In this document: one piece after another, positions 26,201 through 44,054 of the stretch
How positions within the stretch are numbered: the stretch's first letter is position 1
Layout of the letters: each line of letters begins with the position of its first letter
Source of the DNA: Rhododendron vialii
Lineage: Eukaryota > Streptophyta > Magnoliopsida > Ericales > Ericaceae
Length of the DNA stretch: 64,000 nucleotides
NCBI RefSeq assembly: GCF_030253575.1
Contig: NC_080560.1
Coordinates: 36,466,001-36,530,000 of the forward strand
Reading direction: 5' to 3'
Program-made: the position numbers and the translations under genes
Notes under the pieces: model-generated
What the model was told of the DNA's origin: nothing
Database searches by the model: none
Seen by the model: only the letters and a program-made list of their open reading frames with translations

Positions 26201-27408
26201 TTAGTGTTTCTTCTTCTTCCCAAAAGCAACCGCGAGTGGAAGATCATCCTCATTTGTAGATGCATTGCATTGTTTGTTCACAAAGAGCTGTCGACGGTTT
26301 TTTTTGGGTGGCTTTTTAGTCTTTGAAGCTGAGCTACCGGCCTTTTCAGCATAGTTATCTCGCTTAATCTTATTGGGGAATTCATATTCATGAATTGAGT
26401 ATAGACAATTTGGGAGCCTATGCTTTGTATAGTTGTAAGCTTTCACTCGCACAACATATTCCACACCTTGGCAAAGCTTTTCAATTGCTGTTGCGGATAG
26501 CTCGCCCTATGTTTAGATTCACAATCTAAGAATTCCAAACACAAATATGTTTGTATTTTGAGTACCATATGTCATGCAAGTTACCTGTTTTATGTTTTAC
26601 CTCATGTACTCAGCTGTGATGCCAAATATTCCTTCAGCAGCTTGTGGAGACATTGTAGCAACAATAGACCCTGTTTTGTCTGATAACTCCATGTTGAATT
26701 TAAGGCTGTGGAATATTTCAAGGGGAATTGCATAGTTAGCCTTTGCTAGTTATGATATCGTATATTCTTAAATGTATTCAATGAACCATTTCTACGATTA
26801 AGAACTGACTTTGGCACCGGCGATACTCGTTCTTTGCAATGGTTGCACCAAAATGGTCCATCAGTCATGGCATCCATGACATTGTTGCATTTTGAGCATG
26901 TTAGGTACCAAAATTTTTGTGTCAGATCAACAACCTTGCAAATGGCTTGGATCCAGTGGAATTCATACTGCACATTAATTTAGTTAACTTTCTATGCTTT
27001 TGTGAGGTCAAGTTTAATAATGTATTCCAAGTTTTGATGTTGTACCTTGTCAACAGTGGTTGGTCGAAAGCTGATTAACCTTAATGGGGCCCTTTTTGTG
27101 TGGTGTCTTGTGCCGCAGTGGTGTCACACTTGTATTCCTTTCTGGCTTTGGCAATTTGTGGATTGCCTTTGCATTAGCCATACACCTACAGCAGTTGTTT
27201 AATTGGGTTTTAGAGCTTATATTTTGTGATACTTATAAATGGACATTCTTACCAAGCACGTAATTTTTCAGCTGCAAGAATTGGCAGATTGAAGTTGAAG
27301 GTAGTAGAACCTCTTGTAGCCAGCTGGAAACCTGTCAACATAATGGTATTCCCAATCCCCAACAACCTTAAATTCCATAAACATGGGTGACTATTTTTAA
27401 AACAAGTA

Positions 27409-27680
27409 CTCCCTCCGTTCCTTTTTAAGTGTCCTGCTTCGTAACTCCAACTTATTAAAAAGACATCATCATTACACCTTTCACATCAACTTTTTCCTCC
27501 ACTTTCCCTACTTACCCATCATCATTACACTTTTACTCACTAACTTTTCAAAATAAATTCTACTTTTAGGGACAAAATAGACAATACACCAACTTTTACC
27601 TCCCTAACTTTACAAAATGGACACTTATTAAGGGACAGCCCAAAATGGAATACTGGACACAAAAAAAGGGACGGAGGGAG
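27409..27680 (-). mobile_element. Stowaway-type MITE inside the Helitron RPA gene
   Basis: The 272-bp element has the terminal inverted repeats CTCCCTCCGTTCC / GGGACGGAGGGAG between TA duplications (27407-27408 and 27681-27682). The interior is the reverse complement of the copy at 8402-8672. Its crisp ends suggest it is younger than the 7506-7791 copy. Confidence 0.95.
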
Positions 27681-29529
27681 TAGAACTTATGGTTTACCTT
27701 GATAGTTGTTAACTTTCAATCTTGCTCCTTGCACAATAGAGAATGGTCCTTCAAGTGTAGCCATTATTTTTCCCTCATGTTCGGTGAACTGCCCCATAGC
27801 ACAAGCGTTGTTGAAACGTTGCTGCGAATTTTATATTGTGGATGATTAAGAATGTTGGTAGCACACAAAATATAGCTTTGATGTTAAACCGTAAAGACTG
27901 CTATATTTATGTTGTTAATAGGATGCATGACACAACATACCTTGTGTCAATGACAGTTATATTTTGTATGGGGGTGTCATCCTTTGTAGTGTGTTTAGGA
28001 CCAATATGGAATATGGCAAAGAGAACATCTGTTGCATCATGACGCAAACAAAATTAAATTCTTTTGGATTTATGAATTTACCAAAGCCTCGGGTGTCGCG
28101 GGCATATTCACTCAAATCTTTAAGTGGCACAAATTGGTATCTGATACGTCTAATATTGTAAACAGCAACTGAGCTTTCTTCAATTGGTGTTCGGCAAGAG
28201 AGATTCCATTGCAGAGTATTGTCCAGAATACGTAATCTGGTGGGGTGATCTCCACTTTTGCATTGCTTATTAAGTAACTGTCACGCCCTCGATTTTCAAC
28301 TAAAATAATAATATATTTTCTATAAACAAAAATCTTTTTCCTCAACTATCTTTACCATTAAATGTCAAGCCAATCCAAACAAAGAATCAAAGTCTCTTCT
28401 TCTTCTTCTCTCTAATTTTTTTTTTTTTTTACATAAAGTCTCCCAAACATATTCCATTAAAAGGGCTTCACAATAATCAAAGAGAGGAGTTTATACCTAG
28501 CTTTACATATGTTCTAACCAAAAGATACAACCTTCAATTGTGAGTAAAGTACACGACATGAATTAGACTAGATGATAAAACACCTCCTTAATGATTCCAA
28601 TGAAGCTCTCAAGAGACGTCTCAATGTGCACTCCATGCAATCCAAGCTAAGTGCCATGACGAGTACCTGAAAGGATAGGGTGAGCTACACTAGCTCGTAG
28701 AGATATCCATACCTAAATTGCATGCAGAAGTGAAGACAGATCACAAGGGAAAACATTTTCCAAAAGCGTACTTGTTTTGTCAAAAGTGAAGCTCAAAATG
28801 TCATACTCACGCTGGAAAATATTTAACTTCATTTCTCAAACACCAACACTCTCACCCACACACACATCAATATTCTTAAAAATCCCAGCTTACCGCTACG
28901 GCATTACCCAACCCAATCCCTGCTTTTTCATTTTTCCATTTCAATGATCTAAAGATTAGTCTGAGTTCTTTAACAAAATGTTTTCACTTCCTTTTCTCAT
29001 ACAACCAACCAACCTCTCACCAAAAATATACACACTAGGCATGTAGAGCTAGAACATAAGGTAAGCAATGACAAGTCGAACAATACCGCACCTCAACAAT
29101 AAGGAAACTCATCCGTCAATCCCAAATCAAACTTCAAATCTCAACATCTAGCAAAACTCCTCCACATTAAGATTTCCCTTATAAGTCTGACAAGCAAATA
29201 CCATACATGAAACTCTCACAATGCATCACACCACGAGGTACCACTTATACATTCACACAGAACTGCCCATCACACATCAAGAGAACAAGCCACAAGGATT
29301 TGGCGGTCTAAAGGGAAAAATAAAAGAAAACATGTATTGACACATTAGACGTTCCAAGTTACCAACTCAAACTGACATTTTCAATCTTAATTTGATAATA
29401 AATAATAACAAGATTCTCCGTTTCACCATGTCACGCGTTTCGATTTTATTTCCGGGCATTAAGGACCTCATGCGTCTTATGTTCATTTCGGCATCACACC
29501 TTTCGGTAGATCCATGGCTTTCTTGTGCA

Positions 29530-29910
29530 CTTCCGGGCACTAGGGACCCCCGTGCGTCCACTAAAATCCTTTCGTTCAATTCTGGACTTTTGGAACCCCC
29601 GTGCGTCCACTAAAATCTTTTTGATTCAATTCCGGGCTTTTGGGACCCCCGTGCGTCCACTAAAATCCTTTTGATTCAATTCCGGGCTTTTAGGACCCCC
29701 GTGCCTCCACTAAAATCCTTTGAATCAATTCCGGGCTTTTAGGACCCCCGTGCGTCCACTAAAATCCTTTGAATCAATTCCGGGCTTTTAGGACCCCCGT
29801 GCGTCCACTAAAATCCTTTTGATTCAATTCCGGGCTTTTAAGACCCCCGTGCGTCCACTAAAATCCTTTTGATTTAATTCCGGGCTTTTAGGACCCCCGT
29901 GCGTCCCATG
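29530..29910. repeat. Tandem array of ~47-bp units inside LTR-like unit A
   Basis: About eight copies of a unit containing TTCCGGGCTTTTAGGACCCC and GTGCGTCCACTAAAATCC follow each other with few differences. More diverged pieces extend to about 29430 and 29935. The array lies in the intron-like part of the unit. Confidence 0.9.
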
Positions 29911-31795
29911 TTCGGCATCACACCTTACGGTGGATCCGTGGCTTTCATTATCATTCAATTAGTGTCACATATTCTCACTAACAAGCAATCTCTTTATCCA
30001 CCGTTTCTCTAATCCCCACACATAGCAAAACATATCTCTCACACCAATACTTAGATTCAATTACACATAAATAATCTTGTCTTCATCATTTCAATAAAGA
30101 AAGCACAAAAACCCACATCCTTCACATTGTAAATCAACCATTTATTTCACATCTCATATTACCACCAAACGGACCCCCTTTGTGACATCGCCATTAAGAG
30201 TCTAATTTGCAAATACTTATAAAGATCCTCATCTTTGTAGTACCCATCAATGCTTAACAACCATGCACTCATGCCAAGTGATTCACCAAATCCTGTTTAA
30301 CTTACTGCAAGTATCCCGCAAGCCCAGAGACTCAATCTCATGAAAAGACATCGAATAATTTACACATCGCGTCAAACATTCTACAACTTAATTTATCATC
30401 GATCGTATCATCCATCTAATCCATTTTCTATTCCAATCGTTTACAAGTATTTTAACCCTTATGCTCACTAGTTCTCATATCCCAATAGTTAATCATCTAG
30501 ATCAACTCATCCTATCCCCACATATCAAATTGGCGAAATTAATCATTTACATTTGACCATATCCAATTAAACAACATGAATTCCAGGGCGACACTTAAAC
30601 AATTGAAAAGTAGACTTCTTTTTTGAATCCATAGGTCATACATCAAAAGCAGAGTTTGGGTAACCTAACTACGGCCTTGCGATTATAGCTTTAACATAAC
30701 GGTAAAAACTAGTGCAAGGCAGAATTTAGGTCAACTTTGGGTGCAAATCTGTTATCGCTCGGACATACCCACGATGCATGGGATGTATCGTTGGAAAGCT
30801 CTATGTGTCTAGTTTCTAACAAAACAAACGGTGCGTCATTTCGAGTCCCGAGCTAGGAGTTATGGCCATTATACCAAAGTCCGCTGGTGCTGTCAGATTC
30901 TACGCGGGAATAAGTAAAATTGATTGAAAAATCATAACTCTTTCATCTTAAACCTAAAAACATTGAAACCAACGCCAAAGGCTGCACCACTACAAGCCCT
31001 ACACTCAGTAAAAATTCCAGGTTCAGAAACGAGAGGAGGTTAACCCAACAATCAAAAGAAAAACCAATTCGCAACCATTTTCGCACCAGTCAACCAACCC
31101 TGCTTTAGAAATTCACCAAAAATTGTATACTTAACCAAATTACTTGATTCCAACGCCAATCCCTTCTTAACTTAAATATGCAGCTCCTTTAAAAGACCCA
31201 AAGCCACCAAATTGTTCATCATGCCCAGAAAGTTAAAAGAAGACAGCCACGCACAGATTCGCGTATCCAAGAAACAGCTGATATTCAAAAATTCATAACT
31301 AATTGTGTGATTATCGGTTTTTCATGATCTTAGTACCGAAATCTTCGTATTGAAACGTACTTTAACTGTTATGAAGGCACCAAAAATTAATTCCTAGCAG
31401 AAAGGGTCCAAAGAGACAGATTAGCAGAACCCACGAAATTTTCAGCATACAAGATTTATTCAAGACTCAAAATAGATGATCAAACTTGATTCTTGTACAT
31501 CCAACTAACACTTAGACATGTAAAGAAGGTAGGAGATCCCTACCTCGAGGGTTAGAAGCAAGCCCGAACATGGAGGAAACTTCGAAGTGCTCCAATCGTG
31601 AATTTTCTTCGATGGATAGGAAGCTCTCGTCGCGTAGAACAACTTTAGTACTTGGGATTTTTCAAAAGTCTCACTCGTGGTTGATGAAATCGAAGAGAGA
31701 AGGTGAGAGAGGTGAGAGCCGAGAGAGACGCCGGAGAAGAAGAAAGAAAGGAAAGGAAAAGAGAAAAAATAATCTCCTGCTTCCCCTTTTTTTTT

Positions 31796-32119
31796 GGGCG
31801 CCGCTATTCGCAGCCCTCTATTTACTCCCGTAACCCACTAAATTTCGGTAAATGATTGTTGAAAATCATAAATAACATTTCGGTAAATTGCTGTTGAAAA
31901 CAAGATTATATTTCGGTAACTACATGTCGAAAATATGTTCAACTTTCGGTAAACAACTGCCGAACATGCATTTTCGGTAAACATCTGTTGAAAAAAATAT
32001 TATATTTCGGTAATTGGACGCTGAAAATATATCTCAATTTCGGTAACTAACTGTCGAGTATAATTGGAAATTTTTAACGGGTTATGGGAGTAAATAGAGG
32101 GCTGCGAATAGCAGCACCA
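31796..32119. mobile_element. MITE with ~40-bp inverted repeats, inserted in LTR-like unit A
   Basis: The left end GCCGCTATTCGCAGCCCTCT and the complement of the right end (AGAGGGCTGCGAATAGCAGC) match, as do the adjoining ATTTACTCCCGTAACCC and GGGTTATGGGAGTAAAT. Both sides are flanked by runs of T, which may hide an 8-9 bp target duplication. The interior consists of about six direct repeats of a ~35-bp unit beginning TTTCGGTAA and containing a TGTYGAAAA-like block. No coding sequence. Confidence 0.8.
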
Positions 32120-34608
32120 TTTTTTTTTTTTTTGACTTATATAGCACAAATAATACTTTCACCCTTTCACTCCTATTGTATCACGTCAACTCCCACAACT
32201 TACAAGTCATCTCACATTGACCCATCTCATATCCACATTGTTATACACACTTTGATAATCCAAATACATATTAAACATTTAAAATTTGAGAAAATAATTA
32301 CGGGTCTCTACAGTAACTGTGGTATAGTTTGAGTGTGTCTTTCAGCACTTGTATATCAGCATTCCAGATGGTGCACTGGATTTTAGTGCCTTGCATATGG
32401 CATTGCTTTATTGTTTGAAATCACAAATATCTTGGTACTCTTTTTAGGCAGAGGCATCATACAATTATGCTAACCTTAGTCAATAAGCATAAGTTTTTGG
32501 TAAGTCTGATCCCCTGAAGTTACTCTAGGGTAACCTTTTTCAATTACCATTGCTTGAACCGTCCAGTTGGTTATACCTTCTCTGACATTCTCAATCATCC
32601 ACAATTTGTCTGCCATGGCTCAGGCAACAATGGGAACCTGTATTTGTAAAGTTGTATTATGTAAAATGTAAAAGTTTCTATTTAAGCAGATAAACACTAC
32701 AGCTTATGTATTTAATTGTTCCTTATGATGCAAATACTACACAAAAGGGTGGTAAGGCACAAGATTATATACGAGCATTAACTTGGTCATGATTCAGAGC
32801 ACATGTAAAACCTAAAAGCATTTGAACAAAAATGTTTGCTAGTGAATAAGATTGCACTTACACCAGATAGCTCCAAGTCCACTTCTGTTGGATTTGAGCG
32901 TGCTTCGCTCAATATCTCATTGTACACAATATTTTTAGTTGATGTTACTATTTTCTTCTCATTAGAAGATGTATCTAGTATAACTTTTATTTTCGATGCT
33001 GTTGTGGCACAGGAAAGAGCAACAGCAACATATAGTTGTCCATGGGAAAACACAGTTGCTGTAAATTAACGCCCACAATATCTAGTGTTTGCCCTTGAGC
33101 TTTATTTATCGTCATAGCAAAACAGAGCCTTATTAGGAATTGACGCCTGGTGAATTGGACTGGATAAAGCTTAGCATTGGATGGTTGGAGTGAGATACGA
33201 GGTATGAATACAATGTCTCCTTAGTGCTCTCCAACAGCTATTTGCGCCATTATGACGTGTTTATGCAATTTTCGACATATTGGCCTGGTTCCATTGCATA
33301 ATCTTTTGGAAGGATCTAAGTTCTGCAACATCATCACTGGGCAATTTTCCTTTAACACAAGCCGGTGAGATGGCAATCCAGGAGGACAAACTGAATGCAT
33401 GAAATCAACGTATAGTCCTTGGTCAGCTTGGTTGACTATTTCATCAATGCTAAGGAGCACGTACTCTTTTCCTGGAAATCTGTTAATCAGCAGCTCGTTT
33501 GTTTGATCTACTGAATCATTCCTGGGCGTTAGTATTGCAGATTGTGTCATTGATATTGCATCGATAGAGTAGCGTCTTAAATCCGGGAATACAAAATCTA
33601 TAAGTTGTTCAACAGGTGTGGTCTTTTGGTCAGGTGTGATAACCATCGAGGGAGGAATTGTTATCTCATCATTTGAATTGCATGGTTCCTCTCCGTTACC
33701 TACTATTAATAGGTAACAGCTAAGCGATGGATCTGTTCTAGCTCGCATGTTTTCTTTGAGCGTGAATTTTTTAAGACCAAGGCCATATGTGCGACCTCAC
33801 CAAACTGGCATCTATACAATCCTCCTTTGTACCCTTTGGTATAACTGGTAGTACCTGTCTAAAATCCCCACCAAGGACTACAACTTTGCCACCAAACAAA
33901 CTATCAATTTCTGTTATGTCTTTTAATAGATTATCTAGTGCTTCAATACTCTGCCTTTTAGCCATTGATGCTTCATCCCATATAATAAATGAAGTCACTT
34001 TTAATAGTTTTGCTAAACCTGTTTGTTTGCCAACGTTGTAAGATAGCTTGCCATCTCTATCTAGTGGGATCTTAAAGCGAGAATGTGCAGTGCGACCATT
34101 TGGCAAAATTGATGCAGCAACCCCAGAAGTAGCCGTTGCAAGTGCAATACTCCTAGCAGATCTTATGGTTGTAAGTAAAGTACGATATAGGAAGGTTTTG
34201 CCTGTGCCACCAGGACCATCTATGAAAAAAGAGGTACCAACATTTTTTCTAACAGCTTGTAAGATTTCACTGTATGCTTTTAATTGGTCCAGATTAAGTT
34301 TCGAGACGCTTAACAAATCTATCTCTGACACGCTAATATCTTGTTCATCTGAGATTTCTTTGCACATTCGATCATGCTGAGCTTCATTTACTAACAGATC
34401 ATCAAGCCCGAAATCTTGCAAAGTCTTGCCCATAGACTCTAAGGTAGACTTCACAAAACGCAAAAGACATTGTCGTGCCACAGTTGGGAGCATTTTTTTA
34501 TCTCTTAACATAATCTTCCATCAAGGGCTCTTCAAATTTTAAGAGTAGCTCCTTTGGATTAAGTGCACCACAAAACACAAGTATAGTACAAAACAATTGC
34601 ATAAGGGA

Positions 34609-36398
34609 TGTAAAGACCCGTAAATTTCCGTTATATGTTTTAATAATTTATAAATGAATAAGTGTTGGATTATTGAGAATATTAAAGTTGGGGGTCAATG
34701 TGAGAGAATATGGAAAGCCATGGGTGTTCGTGTGATTAGTGCATGTGTGTGCCGTGTATACCAGGAGAAATCCTTTTCTTTTTTTTCATTTTCATCTCAT
34801 CACTCTCTCGTCTCTCGATCTCTCTCACTCTCTCACCCAATCACTCAAAACTCACAACAATCAAGCTTAACTCCATCGTCTACTAGTATATTCGAGCTTG
34901 TATCGTGTTGGACAAAGCTTGGTTCGGCGTATTGTTGCTTGATTTGGACTCCGGAAGCTAGGGTTTACATAATCTTCTTGATTTCGGTTTGGATACTTGA
35001 GGTAGGAAATTCTATCTCTCTTTATATGTTATTTGGGTTCTCCTATGTCTTATTTGAGTATTTCCATGCTTTGTTTGAGCTTGTATTGGTTGTTGTTTGG
35101 TCTGGATCAAAATCTGTCATTTGGTGAAAAATCGCCAAATTCCGGATTCCTACCGGTAGGATATTTTCCTCTACCGGTAGAACTTTGTTACCGTAAAAAT
35201 GTGTGCTCAATGTTTTGAATTTGTACCGGTAGAACTTATTCCCTACCGATAGGATTATTAAATTTTTTCCCACCTACCGGTAGTATTTTTCTTTCTACCG
35301 GTAGAACTCTTACCAGCTGAAACTTTGTACCCACTGTTTACAATTCCTACCGGTAGCTCCATGTTCCCTACAGGTGGACCACCGGTGAAAAGCAAAATCC
35401 TCCTGTACCGTTCTACTTTTTCTTTTCCAAGCCTAAAGGCCTTTCCAGGGGATTCAATGATTAGTTTATTATATATGATGATGGCATGGGCAATCATGCA
35501 TGGTACCATGATCATTGAGACATCCAACTTGGATTTGTCCGAAAATGTAAATTCCTTTTTTTTAAATGTTAAGGATGAGCTTCGAATTGCACAATGTTTT
35601 ACGAAAGATACACTTGAACTTGCAAATGACGCGCAAACATTCAGGGCCCATCGACGGGTGGGTGCCTGGCAGGGGATATCAGGGTTCCATAATTAGCCTG
35701 GCAGGAGCTAATGCTCAAAATAATCACTCAAGGCCCAACCTTCAAGGTGGGTGCTTGGCATGGGATATCAGAGCCCCAAAATTAGCCTGGCAGGAGCTTC
35801 GGCTCAGACACCCAAACGACACGACATGTTGAGACATAAATTGAAAGGGTATGGTTTATGGGTTGAATAAAAGAAAAATTGGAGATTTTGGGACACTTGT
35901 TCATGAAAATTGTGCTTCCTCCGTTGTCTTGTGATCTTTTATCATTCGTTCATTCGTCTCGCTCATTTGCATATAGAGTTTGCGTAGACATTTCTACTGA
36001 GCTAGTGTAGCTCAAGCTTTATATTATTTTCAGGTGCTAACCCGGAACCATAGCTTGCATTGCTTGGCGTGCTTGGAGTGTGGACATTATTTTTGAAAGC
36101 TAACTGAAGGAGTTACCTATTCATCTTTGTCAACTTATTTTGAAAGATGTATTTGTAACTTAAATTGTAATTCTTTTGACTCGGAATATTGTAACCACTA
36201 ATTCTCTTTCGAACTTCGCTACTTATGTTAAATCTGGGGCCGTTGAGCCGATATTGTAATATTTTGGAACCGTGTGAACTTGGAAGTATTTGCTTTGGGA
36301 ATGAGAATATAGTGATCTTTTGGGTACCGTACGGATATTTGTGAGTATTTTTATTATGTAAATCATTTATAATTATGTTTAAAATCGAGGACGTGACA
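34609..36398 (+). mobile_element. LTR-like unit B (solo LTR), 1.8 kb, inserted in the Helitron helicase gene
   Basis: It begins TGTAAAGACCCG and ends CGAGGACGTGACA and is bounded by the perfect 5-bp duplication AGGGA (34604-34608 and 36399-36403). Its termini match units A and C. It has the same internal plan: CT-rich leader, donor-like CTTGAG^GTAGGAAA at 35002, several CTACCGGTAG palindromes (35148-35355), the block GAGCTAGTGTAGCTCAAGC followed by acceptor-like TTTTCAG^GTGCT at 36033, and a ~360-bp conserved end. No coding region is present. Orientation is opposite to the Helitron gene. Confidence 0.85.
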
Positions 36399-39149
36399 AG
36401 GGAATTAGGCATCTGATAACCGCATGCCTCTTTTAAGCATTTTTCATTACCTCTATCATCACTGAGCAATCCATGAGCAATTGCTGCTTCTCTATATGTA
36501 CCATATGTTCTTCCTCCTACGGTTCTTAAGTAAGCAAACGAGGTTGGACTTGGGATGTGGTTCAGTAATAATCTCAAGTAGTACAATTCACCTTGGGATG
36601 GATTTACGGTTATGATACGACCTATTACATTCTTGTGCTGTCGCTCAGACCAATATCTTGTTTGCGTTGACCAAACAAATGCCATCGGAAAATCTTTGTA
36701 CAAGAATTTTGCCTCTTTGGCTTTCTCATTGTGGGCATTCATGTAGAAGAACTGTGTTAACATTGTTCTTGAGAAGAATTCAGAGTCAGCCAAGCAATCC
36801 AAGTTTGTTGTTTTTCTGAAACCCACAACTTGGCAGTTTTCTAAATGCAATTGGAGAGCTATAACTGATGGATGCATATCAAACAAGTTGAATTTGTATA
36901 TCCGCCACATTGCTTCGGGTGGTGTCACCCATCTGGCTGATTGGAATGCTGTGATTTCATCGACAACTTCATTGGTTTGCTGTGCAATGATTTTAAATAC
37001 GATTTTGTCATGTCCTTTGTAGATGTACATGTATAAATATTTAACGGCTTTTATAGTTGAGCAAATTTCAACATTGACATGACAATCCAACATAGCCAGT
37101 AGATATGGATTATAAGGCACCACCCATCTGTTATCCAGCATTTGTTGGCGCACTTGTACTTGCTTGTTATCATTCCTTTGTCGGTAAATTGGATAACCAT
37201 CTGCTGCAACAGTTGTAGCCTCTGTGAATTTTTTGGGATAATGGTTCTTGCATTTATCATTTTTCATGCAGAAGTTACTTGGGTTAAGCTTTCCACAAGG
37301 ACCATGCATCATGTGTCTCAACATGGCTAGATAGAGATGTGGATTTTCATTTTCATCGGTATTTCAGCAGATATAAATTGGTCAAAATGCTCAGGACTTG
37401 TAAGTTTGTGACCTCTCTTCAATATCAGCAGCAAGTGCACATGCGGTAGACCTCTTTTTTGGAACTCGATTACATAGGTGTATGCTTGAACAGGACCAAA
37501 CAGTTTCTTCTTAATGACCTCTTTTTTCATCTGTTCCAATTTGCTTTTAAAGACTCTAGCCACGAGATCAGGCCTGTTCTGTACATCTTCATGTGGCTTC
37601 AATTCATTTGTAATTTCTATCCATTTGGGATTACAAGTCATCGTTAAAAATACATCTGGTTTTCCGTATCTTTCCACTAATGCCATTGCATCCAGATATC
37701 TTTTGTGCATGTCCCGTGGGCCTCCTATGAACGAACCAGGTAGGATTATCTGCGTTCCAATTTTGGATCCCCTTGATTCTCCTTGCGCTACGCTGTCTAT
37801 AATTCCTTGGTACAAATCCGCTCTTATTTCATCTTGCTTATGCCTAAAGTAATCCAGCCTTGAAGTTTCAATCTTGACATACCTACGGCATATTGTTGTA
37901 GCAGCCGACCTGATTCTAAGATAATAGAATCAATTTTTGGCCGTATTTGAAACCGGTACGCATAGAACTCACGAGCCAAAACCATATTTTGTTTTGTCGA
38001 GTTTTCTTCAAACACCGAGGATGAAGCGCAACAATAATAAGTATTTATTTACACCAATTTTGGTAATGAATAGCTTAATAAATTATTTTACTCACATAGA
38101 GATTCAGCATTGAGTAGCTGTTCTACCGTTGTAGATTCATCTGGTATAGATAACGTCTGGGTAGAACATTTGTAGCAATTGGTTCGTTTAATGCCGCGAT
38201 GCCATCCTGGTTCTCCATATGGAAATAATAGTGGATACTGTAGAGGGTCATAGCATCCATAGTAATATTTTATTGTTACACTATGGCCATCATGCTTCTG
38301 AACCAATATATCACGTTCTCTTAGTTCTGAAGCATCTTCGGTGTCCTTCCAGATAAGCGCAACTTGTGATGCTGCTGGTGCACTAAAGGTTTTATCATTC
38401 ACAATTGGATCAGCTCTAAGCCTTATCTGGTAGGAATCTATATTCGGTGTTGTTGATAGGGATCTGAAAAACTTTGAATAGGGATTGGGTTTTAAGATAT
38501 CTATAAGTAGAGTAATGGTGGCTAGATCTAAATTGTCCAGACAGTCTAATCTGTGCTCAACTTCCTTTGCAGTGTCGTAGATGTAAGGACCCGTATTTTT
38601 CGGATATTATTTGAACATTTTATAAAATAAAATAAAATAAAATAAAATGTGAAATTGATTGAGTTTATTTTAATTGTGGGTCAATGTGCAAGAGTTTAAA
38701 ATATGTGGGTGTTAGTGTGATAAGGTGCATGTGTGTATAAGTGTGTGTGTGCCAGGGGAAAATAATTCCCAAAACCCCATCCCATTCTCTCTCCCATTCT
38801 CTCTCGGCTCTCTCTACCTCTCTCACTCCCTCACCCAAAAACTCACCTCTAAATTCAAAACCCACAACAAATAACCTCCATTCCATCTTCTACTCGTGTA
38901 TTGTGGTCCGTATCGCTCCGGTTCGAGCTCGGAGAAGTTGTATTCCGGTTGGAACAAGGTTTTCGGAAAGCTAGGGCTTGTAACTTCTTGGGTTTCGTGC
39001 TCCGACTTCGAGGTAGGGAATTCTACCTCACTTTATATGCTATTTGAGTGTTTTTATGCCTTATTCGAGCTGGTATTGGTTGTCGTCGAGATTGGATCGA
39101 AACTTAAAATTTTCTGTCGAAATCTGTTGAAATCGTCTGTAAGTAACTC

Positions 39150-39540
39150 CTCCTACCGGTAGGAGCTTTTACCCTACCGGTAGAACGATTGAGAAATTTT
39201 GTCAACCAGCTCAAACGTACAGCAGCAGCTCAAAAGCTGCTCAACGTATCGAACTTCTACCGGTAGGAATTCCTTACCTACCGGTAGGTCAAGCATGTAT
39301 CGAACTTCTACCGGTAGGAATTTCTTGCCTACCGGTAGGTCACGCTCGAATTTGAATGTTGACCTTTCTGTTTCCAAGTTCTACCGGTAGGACTTGCTTG
39401 CCTACCGGTAGGTTGCGTGAATTGGAGTTTCTACCGGTAGGACTTGTTCACCTACCGGTAGGTCTAGGTTTTACCGGAATGTTAGCCTTTCTGTTTTCAA
39501 GTTCTACCGGTAGGACTTGCTTGCCTACCGGTAGGAGACT
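39150..39540. repeat. Array of twelve CTACCGGTAG palindromes in six pairs
   Basis: The 10-bp palindrome CTACCGGTAG occurs about twelve times, mostly in pairs whose members are separated by 10-14 bases, typically of the form GAATTCCTTAC or GACTTGCTTGC. The pairs themselves are 20-60 bases apart. LTR-like unit B has about seven intact or nearly intact copies (35148-35355). Confidence 0.9.
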
Positions 39541-40372
39541 AGAAGTTTCACCTGCTTTCACCTGCTTATTTGAGCTGCTGCAGTATCTTTCAGCTGCTTT
39601 CCTATATCTTTCAACTTGCATGTCAAAGCCTCTCATCGACTCTAATGAGCTTGTTTGTGTATTCTTCCAAGTGTTTTGATGAGTATTACTCATTTCTCAC
39701 TTAGAGTGGCATCCAATGGACTAGAGTGAACATGTCTAGGGATTCGATGAGTAGTGTTGCAATCCGTTCCCTCTCTCGATTCGTAAATTTCTTAGATTCG
39801 TTTAGTACATGCTTTTACGGACTCCAAGTATAGAAACTAGATGATCAGGCATCGTAAAGTCTAGTCATGGGTTAATATGTGGCGTGTGAAGGTACGGGAA
39901 ATGTACTTAGAGGTACGGTGAGGACGCGTGAGGTTATGGTGTACTTAAAGGAATAGGCGTGTAATAATTAATTAGTCCGAGTCTTGATATGGATGACAGT
40001 TAGGAACGGTTTGAGATGTAGTCAACGTGGTAGATTGGTAGATTGTTTGGAATGCTTGAAGTGAAAATTGATGTGAGAAAGAATTGTTTGAAATGAGGAA
40101 ATAACTCGTGTCCTCTCGACTCGTCAAGCCTTTTAATCCTTTTGACACTCTCTCTATGAGGCTCAAGTGTAGAAACTAACGGATAAAGTATGGTAGGATT
40201 ATATGTACGGGCTTAGTATGCTATGTCAAATGTGAATGGCTAAATTAATGAAAAGGCATGAACATGTATATTTGTGGAGTCACGTAATGATTAATTAAAA
40301 TTCAGTGGTATAACCGTTAAAGGGATGATGAAATTGATTATGAAATGATGTCGATTGTGAAAAGTGTGAAAG

Positions 40373-40597
40373 GTGACCCAAGTGGTCGTTATTGAGGGAA
40401 AAGACTCGGGGTGACCCTGCGCTCGAGGGAACTAGACCCGAGGTGACCCAACTGATTCATATTATTGGAGGAAAAGACTTGGGGTGACCCTGCGCTCGAG
40501 GGAACTAGACCCAAGGTGACCCCACCTGATTATTGTTATTGAGGGAAAAGACTCGGGGTGACCCTGCGCTCGAGGGAACTAGACCCGAGGTGACCCT
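40373..40597 (+). repeat. Three tandem copies of a ~73-bp unit in LTR-like unit C
   Basis: Copies start at 40373, 40443 and 40516 with GGTGACCC or GTGACCC and contain GGGAAAAGACTCGGGGTGAC and CCTGCGCTCGAGGGAACTAG; a fourth begins at 40590 and breaks off. Confidence 0.9.
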
Positions 40598-42800
40598 AGT
40601 GATTATTTGATGGGAAATACCGGATTAAAGGAAAAGAAAGGTTTTGAAATTAAGGGATTTAATGAAGATCAATGTGGACACGAGAAAGATTGTACTATCA
40701 TACGGAGAATAATAAGATGTTTTGATTTGATTATAGACAAGTGTGAGATGACGTGAGTTTAATAATGTAACTAGTTAAAGAAGTAAACGGCTAGTGACAT
40801 TGATGTGAAGTCTAGGACTCTTAGGCGATAATTCGCAGCTTGTTGGTAGTCATTTGTGGTATAGGCGTATCTGTCAGTACTCATTCATTCTCGGTGCATG
40901 GTTCATTCAAATTGCATATAGCTTGAGTTTAGAATTTTCTACTGGGCTAGTGTAGCTCAACCAAATCTTTCTTTTCAGGTTCTGATGCCGGGCAATAGAT
41001 TGCATGCATTATGTGCTTGACAGTAAAAGACTTTTGGAAGCTGACATCACTGGTTATTTCGTCATCTTTGTGAAGATCTCATTTTGTTAAAGGTGGTTTT
41101 GTAACTAATTATTACTGAATTTTCTTTTGACTAAAGTTGTAATTATCTAAACTTAAGGACTTGTTTGTAAATTAAACAGGTGGGAAACTCATTTGGGTAA
41201 CGTATATGATATGCGAGGTTTCTCTTTTATTGAAATGTATTACTTTATTATGTTGAAAATCGAGGGCGTGACAGTAGAAGTGTAGCTGAAGGTAGGATGG
41301 CTTCCCATCTGCAGGGTATAGAGTGTGGAGGAAGTGGTAGATTTGACATTAGCACGGAACGTGTAGATCCCTTGGTGGTTTTTGGTGTACCGTGGGTCGA
41401 GAGTTACACCGAATGAAGTGAAAGCGAACATATTGTTGTAAGGACGAATATGTGTTCGGAAATCTTTGGATAATTTCGAAGAATCTCGATACAGGTTTAG
41501 TAGCTTATCCGAAGTACACAAAGGATAGAGGGAGACTTGACCCTTGGAGCAACAAAAACCATCAGGTTCAAATGGGAAGCGTTTGGCATGACAATGAACA
41601 TACTGAGGTACGCTCGGCAACACAAATGGTTTGGTTGGCACTGGATGTCGACGTACAGGTACAGGTTGGCCATTTGTATTTCCTTTTCCTATAGTAGCAA
41701 AATACGAGAGAACGGAACTATTAGTTGTCGTGCGGGTAATCCCCTGGTATGAACAAATACTTGAGTTTAAGAAATAAATATACTGGATCTTTTTGCGGCT
41801 GCAACTGTTGCACATGAGCTTGAACCTGAAATCGACTAGAGTTAGAAGGTCTGTCATTTATTCGAAAGTTGAAGATGGGACTGGGAAATTCCATACATGT
41901 TTTATTACTATGCTATAAAGAAATCCCACTCAAAACATTAAATTACCTATTTCATGTATACTGGTAGCACAACAATGAACAAAAGGCCGAGAAACCTTGG
42001 TAAGTACACCTGCCACAAAGGTTTTTGTGGCATCTTCATCTGTCGAAATTGTCGCAGCTGGTTATGGCTCAGTCACAACTTCTGAGTTGGTTGGATGAAC
42101 TGTTTGTGTTGGAACCATGGTACGTGTCATATTTTGCCAGAAGTTTCCAGACCTATTTGTAGAGCGAATTGATCTTGTTGATTCTTCGCTGTTCTTTTTT
42201 TTTCTGTAAGCGTAATTGTTTACGGCGTTCATTCCGCTTGGCCCTGGCTGCTGCTGGAAGATTACCATTTAATTCTCTACGACGTTGATTGCGCCGATCT
42301 TTGGTATCTTGTGGGATATCAGCATACGAAGTTCGAGGTTTCTTGTTTGCAATCTTGCTAGCTAACCAATCCAGGTACTGCAAGACTATTATATTATTCA
42401 TGTTACGTCAATTAGCATTCTATTATTCGAGGCTGTAAAATTAGTTTTCCAACAGGACTACCATATTAACTTCGACCAACAGCTAATCTCACTAACGCAT
42501 AACCTGATAATCAAACTCCAACAATTGTTTACTATGCCTAGCTCTAGCATATTGTTGGCCTGGCCTTTTTCTGACTATATATAGTCAGGAGGCTTACAGA
42601 TAGCAAAGTTAATAACAAGTGATATTAGATACAATGATTAGCATTAATACAACAACAAAGTATATCTAATTTATGTTTGTGTGATACACAACTAATAACA
42701 AGGTTCCAAGAATTTTTATGGTTTTACTAAAAATTAAGGTTAAGAGTTATTGAGATACACACCTTTTGGAGGCCTGCTAATTTTGCTGAAGAACAAAACC

Positions 42801-43938
42801 CAGGAATTGTGCAGATATAGTTACAGCTTTTTTCGGAGCAAGTAAAGGATGACGGAAAGATTCAATACACAGTTTTATAGCACAACGCTGGGTTTTTTCC
42901 CTTTTCTCTTTTTTCTGTTTTTTGGGGTGTACTACTCTGTGCATTTATGGCAAAGCAATGGTTCAAGATACTATTCCAATACACATCATTTTCTTCTTTT
43001 CATAGCTGTTTTATAGCTGCTGGGCATTTATAGCAAATCAATAGTCATGATACTATGCAAATTCACATCACTTACTTCTATTGATAGGTCTTTTTATAGG
43101 CTTAGGTGCCTCATGTAATAGCGCGTAGTGTTACTTGTGCTACCCGATTACTATTTATTGTGATCTGATTTATATATCACAAGCAACTGGTTAAAACCTG
43201 CGTCTTCTTACCACTCCAACAAATTCCTCTAATCCTTTCTCTTTTGGGATTTTGAATTTGGATTTGCAGATAATGAGCGTGAAAAGAAATAGAATAACAA
43301 AACTCAAGAATTGTGCAGATATAGTTGCAGCTTTTTTCGGAGCAAGTAAAGGATGACGGGAAGAATCAATACACAGCTTTATAGCGCAACGCTGAGTTTT
43401 TTCCTTTTTTCCTTTTTTCTGTATTTTGGGGTGTACTACTTTGTGCATTTATGGCAAAGCAATAGTCCAAGATACTATTCCAATACACAGCATTTTCTTC
43501 TTTTGATAGCTGTTTTATAGCTGCGGGCATATTTATGGCAAATCAATAGTCATGATACTATGCAAATTCACATCATTTACTTCTCTTGATAGGTCTTTTT
43601 ATAGGCTTAGGTGCCTCACGTATATGCTACCCGTGTACTATTTATTGTGATCTGATTTATATATCGCAAGCAATTGGCTAAAATCTGCGTCTTCTCACCA
43701 TCCAACAAATTCCTCTAATCCTTTCTCTTTTGGGATTTTGAATTTGGATTTGTAGATAATGAGCGTGGAAAGAAATAGAATAACGAAACCCAAGAATTGC
43801 GCAGATATAGTTGCAACTTTTTTCGGAGCAAGTAAAGGATGACGGGAAGATTCAATACATAGCTTTATAGCACAATGCTGGGTTTTTTCCTTTTTCCTTT
43901 TTTCTGTATTTTGGGGTGTACTACTCTGTGCATTTATT
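42801..43938. repeat. ~490-bp tandem repeat upstream of the Helitron Rep gene
   Basis: A unit with ATTGTGCAGATATAGTT, TTTTTCGGAGCAAGTAAAGG, ATGACGG and TTTTTTGGGGTGTACTACT-like blocks starts near 42801, 43305 and 43791. The third copy ends after ~150 bases at 43938. Copies 1 and 2 also share CACATCA-TACTTCT and ATAGGTCTTTTTATAGGCTT. The small open frames here (43191-43448, 43695-44009) are repeats of each other for the same reason. Position suggests the untranslated 5' side of the Helitron gene. Confidence 0.8.
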
Positions 43939-44054
43939 GGAAGAGTTTGTTTAAAATCTAGACCATCCAAATACATCTGGACGGTCAGAATTACACACAC
44001 AACCAACACAACGGTTGTGCAAGTAGCATTTTTGAATAAGTAAAGAGAGAAATA

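What the first reader, a model, noticed from the sequence alone, without database searches (positions are those of the whole stretch)
26201..43938. One dead Helitron hit three times by the same LTR-like family, each hit a single unit with a perfect 5-bp target duplication
Units A (GTAAC), B (AGGGA) and C (GTAGA) all have TGTARRGACCCG-like starts and CGAGGRCGTGACA ends, yet none has an internal gag-pol region or a second LTR. Two lie in the Rep-helicase gene and one in the RPA gene. Three out of three being single units inside one element is striking: either solo-LTR formation is very efficient for this family, or the family moves as a stand-alone LTR-like unit. Duplications and ends are read directly from the sequence; the mechanism is inference.
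Basis: partly seen in the sequence, partly recalled or inferred. Interest (0 to 1): 0.7.

Follow-up and report, generated by a model that had tools for sequence, protein, structure and literature searches.

The report
Three ordinary solo LTRs in a Helitron
Three single ends of plant retrotransposons sit inside an old Helitron; full two-ended relatives are plentiful in the same genome, so these are most likely normal remnants of recombination between the two ends and not a new kind of mobile unit.

Summary
Units A (28279-32312, minus), B (34609-36398) and C (38582-41273) have the stated ends and perfect 5-bp duplications, and other copies of the Helitron show the empty site for each. They are not one family: they share only ends and short patches, so they are three families of one lineage. 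The genome has 227 LTR ends followed by a primer-binding site, and relatives of every unit include LTR pairs. The one B-type element read carries gag, protease, RT, RNase H, integrase and a borderline chromodomain; the one C-type internal region read is deleted, the one A-type is 1.36 kb and non-coding. Among 100 LTR ends on contig 1, at most 54 were unpaired against at least 28 elements, not unusual for plants. An A-type array of four LTRs lies inside one duplication. Against this reading, four B-type solos, unit B included, cluster in a tree with modest support. One side pattern is unexplained: LTR and internal length trade off with slope about -2.

The parts
28279..32312 (-). Unit A: solo LTR, family A (4034 bp; contains a later 322-bp inverted-repeat insertion)
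   Evidence: ends and flanks; relatives; empty site
28274..28278 (.). target duplication GTAAC of unit A, low side
32313..32317 (.). target duplication GTAAC of unit A, high side
31797..32118 (.). 322-bp inverted-repeat (MITE-like) insertion inside unit A; arms 46 nt, 89% complementary; matches of many related LTRs break at unit-A positions ~190 and ~517
34609..36398 (+). Unit B: solo LTR, family B (1790 bp)
   Evidence: relatives; empty site L069
34604..34608 (.). target duplication AGGGA of unit B, low side
36399..36403 (.). target duplication AGGGA of unit B, high side
38582..41273 (+). Unit C: solo LTR, family C (2692 bp)
   Evidence: relatives at 95-99% over the full length; empty site L070
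38577..38581 (.). target duplication GTAGA of unit C, low side
41274..41278 (.). target duplication GTAGA of unit C, high side
33224..34520 (-). Helitron helicase pieces (PIF1, Pif1_2B)
37330..37929 (-). Helitron_like_N (Rep) piece
26749..26979 (-). RPA-like C-terminal piece (weak, below the Pfam cut-off)

Best explanation
The three units are solo LTRs. Three separate two-LTR retrotransposons of one Ty3/gypsy chromovirus lineage (probably Del/Tekay) inserted into the Helitron, each making a 5-bp duplication. [quoted passage not shown] Shown: insertions, duplications, empty sites, full-length relatives with PBS and PPT, coding capacity of one family B element, and a four-LTR array inside one duplication. 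Inferred: that these three copies were once full-length, and that families A and C use the proteins of coding members such as family B.
For: 227 places have the LTR end CGAGGRCGTGACA followed within 8 nt by TGGTATCAGAGC and 189 have the PPT directly before an LTR start; the reversed controls gave 0. Recount of the capped lists by 3' LTR end: C 18 same-strand pairs and 3 other singles (17 pairs 5.81-5.94 kb apart, one 14.3 kb apart); B 17 pairs and 5 other singles (14 pairs at 7.0-7.1 kb, the rest 6.4, 6.6 and 14.2 kb); A 6 pairs at 4.65-5.13 kb, one array and 21 other singles. Unit B's best outside match (96%) is in a pair; unit C's ten best outside matches (97-99%) are all in pairs. One full element per family has a perfect outer duplication: ATTTT (C), GTAGT (A), GTCTA (B). 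The B element's pieces match Retrotrans_gag, RVP_2, RVT_1, RNase H, integrase domains and Chromo. Single units elsewhere also carry perfect duplications: 8 of 15 on contig 1, L041-L043 of family B, and 3 of 3 A-type singles read at both LTR ends. A fourth B-type single, L054, has AAAAT on both sides only if its end is taken two bases further out, TA for TG. Four A-type LTRs on C12 (spacing 5059 three times) lie inside one duplication TTCAC. Over the matched stretch of 1257-1783 bp, 10 of 12 B-type LTR pairs are 99.9-100% identical, so full elements inserted recently.
Against: In the tree of 28 B-type LTRs (19 distinct) unit B groups with three other duplication-flanked solos (support 89/82, below the tool's 95/80 mark), beside the pair L040/L044; the solo label of 5 rows needs 2 changes against 4.7 in shuffles, 0 of 500 as low. 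Stand-alone movement would give such a cluster too. Unit A's best relative (C10:35255291, 93%) is itself single. Seven of 15 single units on contig 1 lack a perfect duplication, and 39 of the 54 unpaired ends were not read at their 5' end.
Confidence: 0.95

Rival explanations
1. The units move as stand-alone LTR-like elements: a single LTR is copied and integrated with a 5-bp duplication, with no two-LTR stage.
For: Single units with perfect duplications are common, and four B-type solos cluster in the tree.
Against: Paired relatives with PBS, PPT and outer duplications exist for all three families. Unit C's ten closest matches are LTRs of pairs. The excess of singles is modest.
Confidence: 0.02
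2. Single LTRs arise at integration and not by later recombination, for example by integration of one-LTR products.
For: A single LTR with a perfect duplication looks the same under both routes; no call here separates them directly.
Against: The four-LTR array inside one duplication fits LTR-LTR exchange, although PMC11899658 (Discussion read) says such arrays could also come from retrotransposition. The best-matching B-type pairs are young while its solos lie on longer branches, which fits loss with time.
Confidence: 0.03

Closest known systems
Solo LTRs of plant LTR retrotransposons (unequal homologous recombination)
   Same: single LTR, TG...CA ends, 5-bp duplication, full relatives in the genome
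   Different: Nothing of note. PMC7251063 (passages read) fits solo/full against genome size as 2.69 + 0.00114x over 15 plant species, all families together; the upper bound here is 1.9, by another method
Del/Tekay chromoviruses (PMC4029996; section 14 and passages read)
   Same: LTR length within the reported 1.1-4.8 kb; GGG at U5 positions -8 to -10 in A and C; chromodomain match in the family B element
   Different: B has A at -8; the start TGTARRGACCC differs from the sorghum and maize motif TGTAACACCC; no RT tree with reference elements was made
LARDs (large retrotransposon derivatives; definition recalled)
   Same: family A: long LTRs, PBS and PPT present, non-coding internal part in the one copy read
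   Different: internal part of only 1.35-1.36 kb, shorter than its LTR; LARD internals as recalled are several kb
Tandem LTR-RT arrays (PMC11899658; abstract and Discussion read)
   Same: alternating LTRs and internal regions inside one duplication
   Different: none seen

Membership tests
solo LTR | single LTR with intact ends, no internal part or second LTR | tested here: met
solo LTR | target-site duplication and empty site | tested here: met
solo LTR | full-length relatives with two such LTRs | tested here: met
Ty3/gypsy chromovirus | gag, PR, RT, RNase H, INT and chromodomain in that order (one family B element, C5:6144317-6153124, read in pieces) | tested here: met
   Chromo E 3e-5 at 24.2 bits is just under its cut-off of 25.1, and rve at 24.8 is under 32.6; the other named domains pass
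Ty3/gypsy chromovirus | own coding region in families A and C | tested here: not met
   one copy each: A internal has no stop-free stretch of 80 aa or more; of four C pieces scanned only one matched, a zinc knuckle
Del/Tekay lineage | type A U5 end with GGG at -8 to -10 | tested here: inconclusive
   A and C have it, B has A at -8; motif from PMC4029996 section 14
Del/Tekay lineage | placement in an RT tree with reference elements | not tested
   no named reference elements on hand
LARD | long LTRs, PBS and PPT present, non-coding internal (family A) | tested here: met
   one internal region read; definition recalled
LARD | mobilised in trans by a coding relative | not testable with these tools
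   shared ends, PBS and PPT are compatible

The most novel reading that the evidence does not exclude
Across this lineage LTR length and internal length trade off with slope about -2: r = -0.98 over 25 elements, r = -0.97 and slope -2.04 over 32, r = -0.97 and slope -1.93 over 6 family means. Total DNA length stays at 8.6 +/- 0.3 kb (7.8-9.0) while LTRs range from 1.7 to 3.7 kb and LTR plus internal from 4.7 to 7.1 kb. If general, selection would act on the length of the finished double-stranded copy and not on the packaged RNA.
Probability: 0.1. Interest if true: 0.5.

Novelty: new member of a known kind. Interest (0 to 1): 0.15.

Why it matters
It shows one coding and two coding-poor retrotransposon families with similar ends, PBS and PPT in one genome, a possible case of cross-mobilisation. 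The near-constant total length is a cheap pattern to test in other genomes.

Tried and rejected
Rejected: (1) one family for A, B and C (BLASTN patches only). (2) Chance duplications or a misassembly within the window (empty sites in other copies). (3) LTRs growing by taking in internal sequence: BLASTN of the three LTRs against B, C and A internal parts found only the short LTR edges fetched with them. (4) Stand-alone movement.

Led nowhere: ARAGORN on the window found no tRNA. Pfam on further Helitron pieces at E up to 1 gave Rep_fac-A_C in two pieces (4e-4 and 0.04), DUF223 at 0.08, and otherwise unrelated weak matches. Of the searches I saw listings with the starts of abstracts, and opened three papers (PMC4029996, PMC7251063, PMC11899658).

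Limits of counts: the genome search scored only the 39-40 best candidates of each long DNA query, so searches are not unbiased samples. The ratio comes from the first 100 of 1299 exact 17-mer ends, all on contig 1 up to 25.06 Mb; decayed ends are missed. The 100 are: 19 with exact PBS, 6 with a one-mismatch PBS, 15 paired with an exact-PBS end by spacing (one, at 8121 bp, doubtful), 2 paired with a one-mismatch-PBS end, 4 preceded by the PPT (one with a mismatch, read by eye), and 54 left over. One of the 54 (L160) has a three-mismatch PBS-like match that I took as chance. The 54 are an upper bound for solos. The elements are 25 PBS ends plus 3 of the 4 PPT-preceded LTRs, 28 in all; the fourth (C1:6302254) is the 3' LTR of an element whose PBS end is already counted. 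Of the 54, 15 were read at both ends: 8 perfect duplications, 2 with 4 of 5, 1 with 3 of 5, 4 with 2 or fewer (two of these share flanks and are copies of one event; one, L135, stands next to a PPT-preceded LTR with the same downstream flank). In one search four more A-type places were read at one true end only and not counted (L170, L171, L172, L179), and for C13:24099145 (L168, L169) the low end read was not an LTR start.

The 25 elements were picked by hand from those with boundaries; one search adds seven, so lists are not exhaustive. A suspected short element (starts C1:6098918 and 6102446) was fetched: the 1.08 kb before its 3' LTR is 94% like the last third of a C-type internal region, with no LTR end or PBS motif, so it looks truncated and was not measured. 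In one search, 78 of 100 listed PPT rows were typed (rows past C5:18 Mb left out, and one C5 row missed by oversight). L045 and L046 (partial matches) were left out.

Full report
Observation. The window lies at C4:36466001-36530000 of an unnamed 533-Mb genome in 13 contigs. Three units with the stated ends are present. Limits and perfect 5-bp duplications are: A 28279-32312 (minus, 4034 bp, GTAAC), B 34609-36398 (plus, 1790 bp, AGGGA), C 38582-41273 (plus, 2692 bp, GTAGA). The host is a Helitron with Helitron_like_N and PIF1 pieces and a weak RPA C-terminal match. Other copies of the Helitron continue straight across each site: L002, L003 and L004 for A, L069 for B and L070 for C. The insertions are real and later than the split of these Helitron copies.

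One family or three. BLASTN among the units finds little beyond the ends. At the 3' end A matches C over 49 bp at 86% and B over 53 bp at 77%, plus one short stretch each (29 and 86 bp). B and C match in several patches, the longest 423 bp at 67%. They are three families of one lineage.

Full-length relatives. LTR end plus PBS gives 227 places and PPT plus LTR start gives 189, both with 0 in the reversed control. In the capped lists, grouped by 3' LTR end, family B has 17 pairs and 6 singles, C 18 pairs and 4 singles, A 6 pairs, one four-LTR array and 22 singles, the window's own units included; one of the B singles is paired. One full element of each family was read at its outer flanks and carries a perfect duplication. 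The internal part of one family B element (5.24 kb) matches gag, protease, RT, RNase H and integrase domains and a borderline chromodomain. The one C internal part read (3.2 kb) has a zinc knuckle and patches similar to B near both ends. The one A internal part read (1.36 kb) has no stop-free stretch of 80 aa and shares with B and C only 65-79 bp next to the PBS and 37-51 bp next to the PPT. Among PBS-PPT spans of 1.3-5.7 kb found in the partial lists for contigs 1-5, 27 of 35 lie between 2.9 and 3.3 kb; three longer spans re-use a paired PBS or run across a nested element.

Ratio of single units to full elements. Of the first 100 17-mer LTR ends on contig 1, 25 are followed by a PBS (19 exact, 6 with one mismatch), 17 are 3' LTRs by spacing, 4 are preceded by the PPT, and 54 remain. 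That is at most 54 singles to at least 28 elements, about 1.9 to 1. PMC7251063 (passages read) fits 2.69 plus a small term for genome size across 15 plant species, so this is not unusual. At this ratio three singles out of three has a chance of about 0.29. Fifteen of the 54 were read at both ends: 8 have perfect duplications and 2 have 4 of 5. B-type singles L041-L043 and three of three A-type singles read at both LTR ends have perfect duplications; L054 has AAAAT on both sides only if its end is read two bases further out.

Evidence for recombination. Four A-type LTRs lie on C12 at 5059-bp spacing three times over inside one duplication TTCAC. Three LTR starts on C1 near 13.9 Mb lie 6204 bp apart twice. 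Such arrays are the expected reciprocal product of LTR-LTR exchange, although PMC11899658 (Discussion read) leaves open an origin during retrotransposition. B-type pairs are young: over the matched stretch 10 of 12 are 99.9-100% identical, the others 98.2% and 97.5%.

Evidence that points the other way. In the tree of 28 B-type LTRs four duplication-flanked solos, unit B among them, group together with modest support (89/82) beside the pair L040/L044. A search with one of them (L041) finds the other solos first, then the pairs. This could be read as a lineage of single units. I read it as age: the solos are on longer branches, the neighbouring pair is the second most diverged of the 12 measured, and one solo (L042) lies between two more stretches related to the same LTRs. 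The sample was the best 40 candidates only.

Lineage. LTR length and the U5 end of A and C fit the Del/Tekay description in PMC4029996 (section 14 and passages). B deviates at one base and no RT tree was made, so the name is probable, not shown.

Side observation. In 25 hand-picked elements total length is 8.57 +/- 0.28 kb although LTRs range from 1.78 to 3.74 kb, slope -2.0. With seven more it is 8.60 +/- 0.31 kb, range 7.82-9.03, slope -2.04. Over six family means r is -0.97 and slope -1.93. PMC4029996 reports no correlation of internal with LTR length in Del elements (passage). Few independent families and hand selection make this a lead only.

The odds did not need to change.

Noticed in passing
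32 elements on C1, C2, C5-C9, C11 and C12: LTR and internal lengths trade off with slope about -2, keeping total length near 8.6 kb; unexplained, few independent families.
   Followed up: partly
G000:C12:14576509-14595295: Four family A LTRs in tandem at exact 5059-bp spacing, flanked by a single duplication TTCAC.
   Followed up: partly
G000:C1:13903797-13916218: Three LTR starts 6204 bp apart twice, with two PBS-bearing LTR ends: a three-LTR array.
   Followed up: no
window 27409-27678: 270-bp insertion with CTCCCTCCGT-type ends in the Helitron, absent from copies L002, L003 and L004; looks like a TA-flanked MITE (label recalled).
   Followed up: no
window 31797-32118: 322-bp inverted-repeat insertion inside unit A, missing from many related LTRs.
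   Followed up: no
window 42788-44013: Three copies of a 236-nt stretch at 504- and 486-bp spacing (92% and 62% to the first) at one end of the Helitron region.
   Followed up: no
G000:C1:7240504, 7314069 and 7438451; C1:9855673 and 10459890; C1:12509300 and 12624183: Single LTR ends that share their downstream flank: one insertion copied together with its surroundings.
   Followed up: no
G000:C1:6285344-6302254: A C-type element interrupted by a second two-LTR element of the same lineage (6289738-6298162).
   Followed up: no
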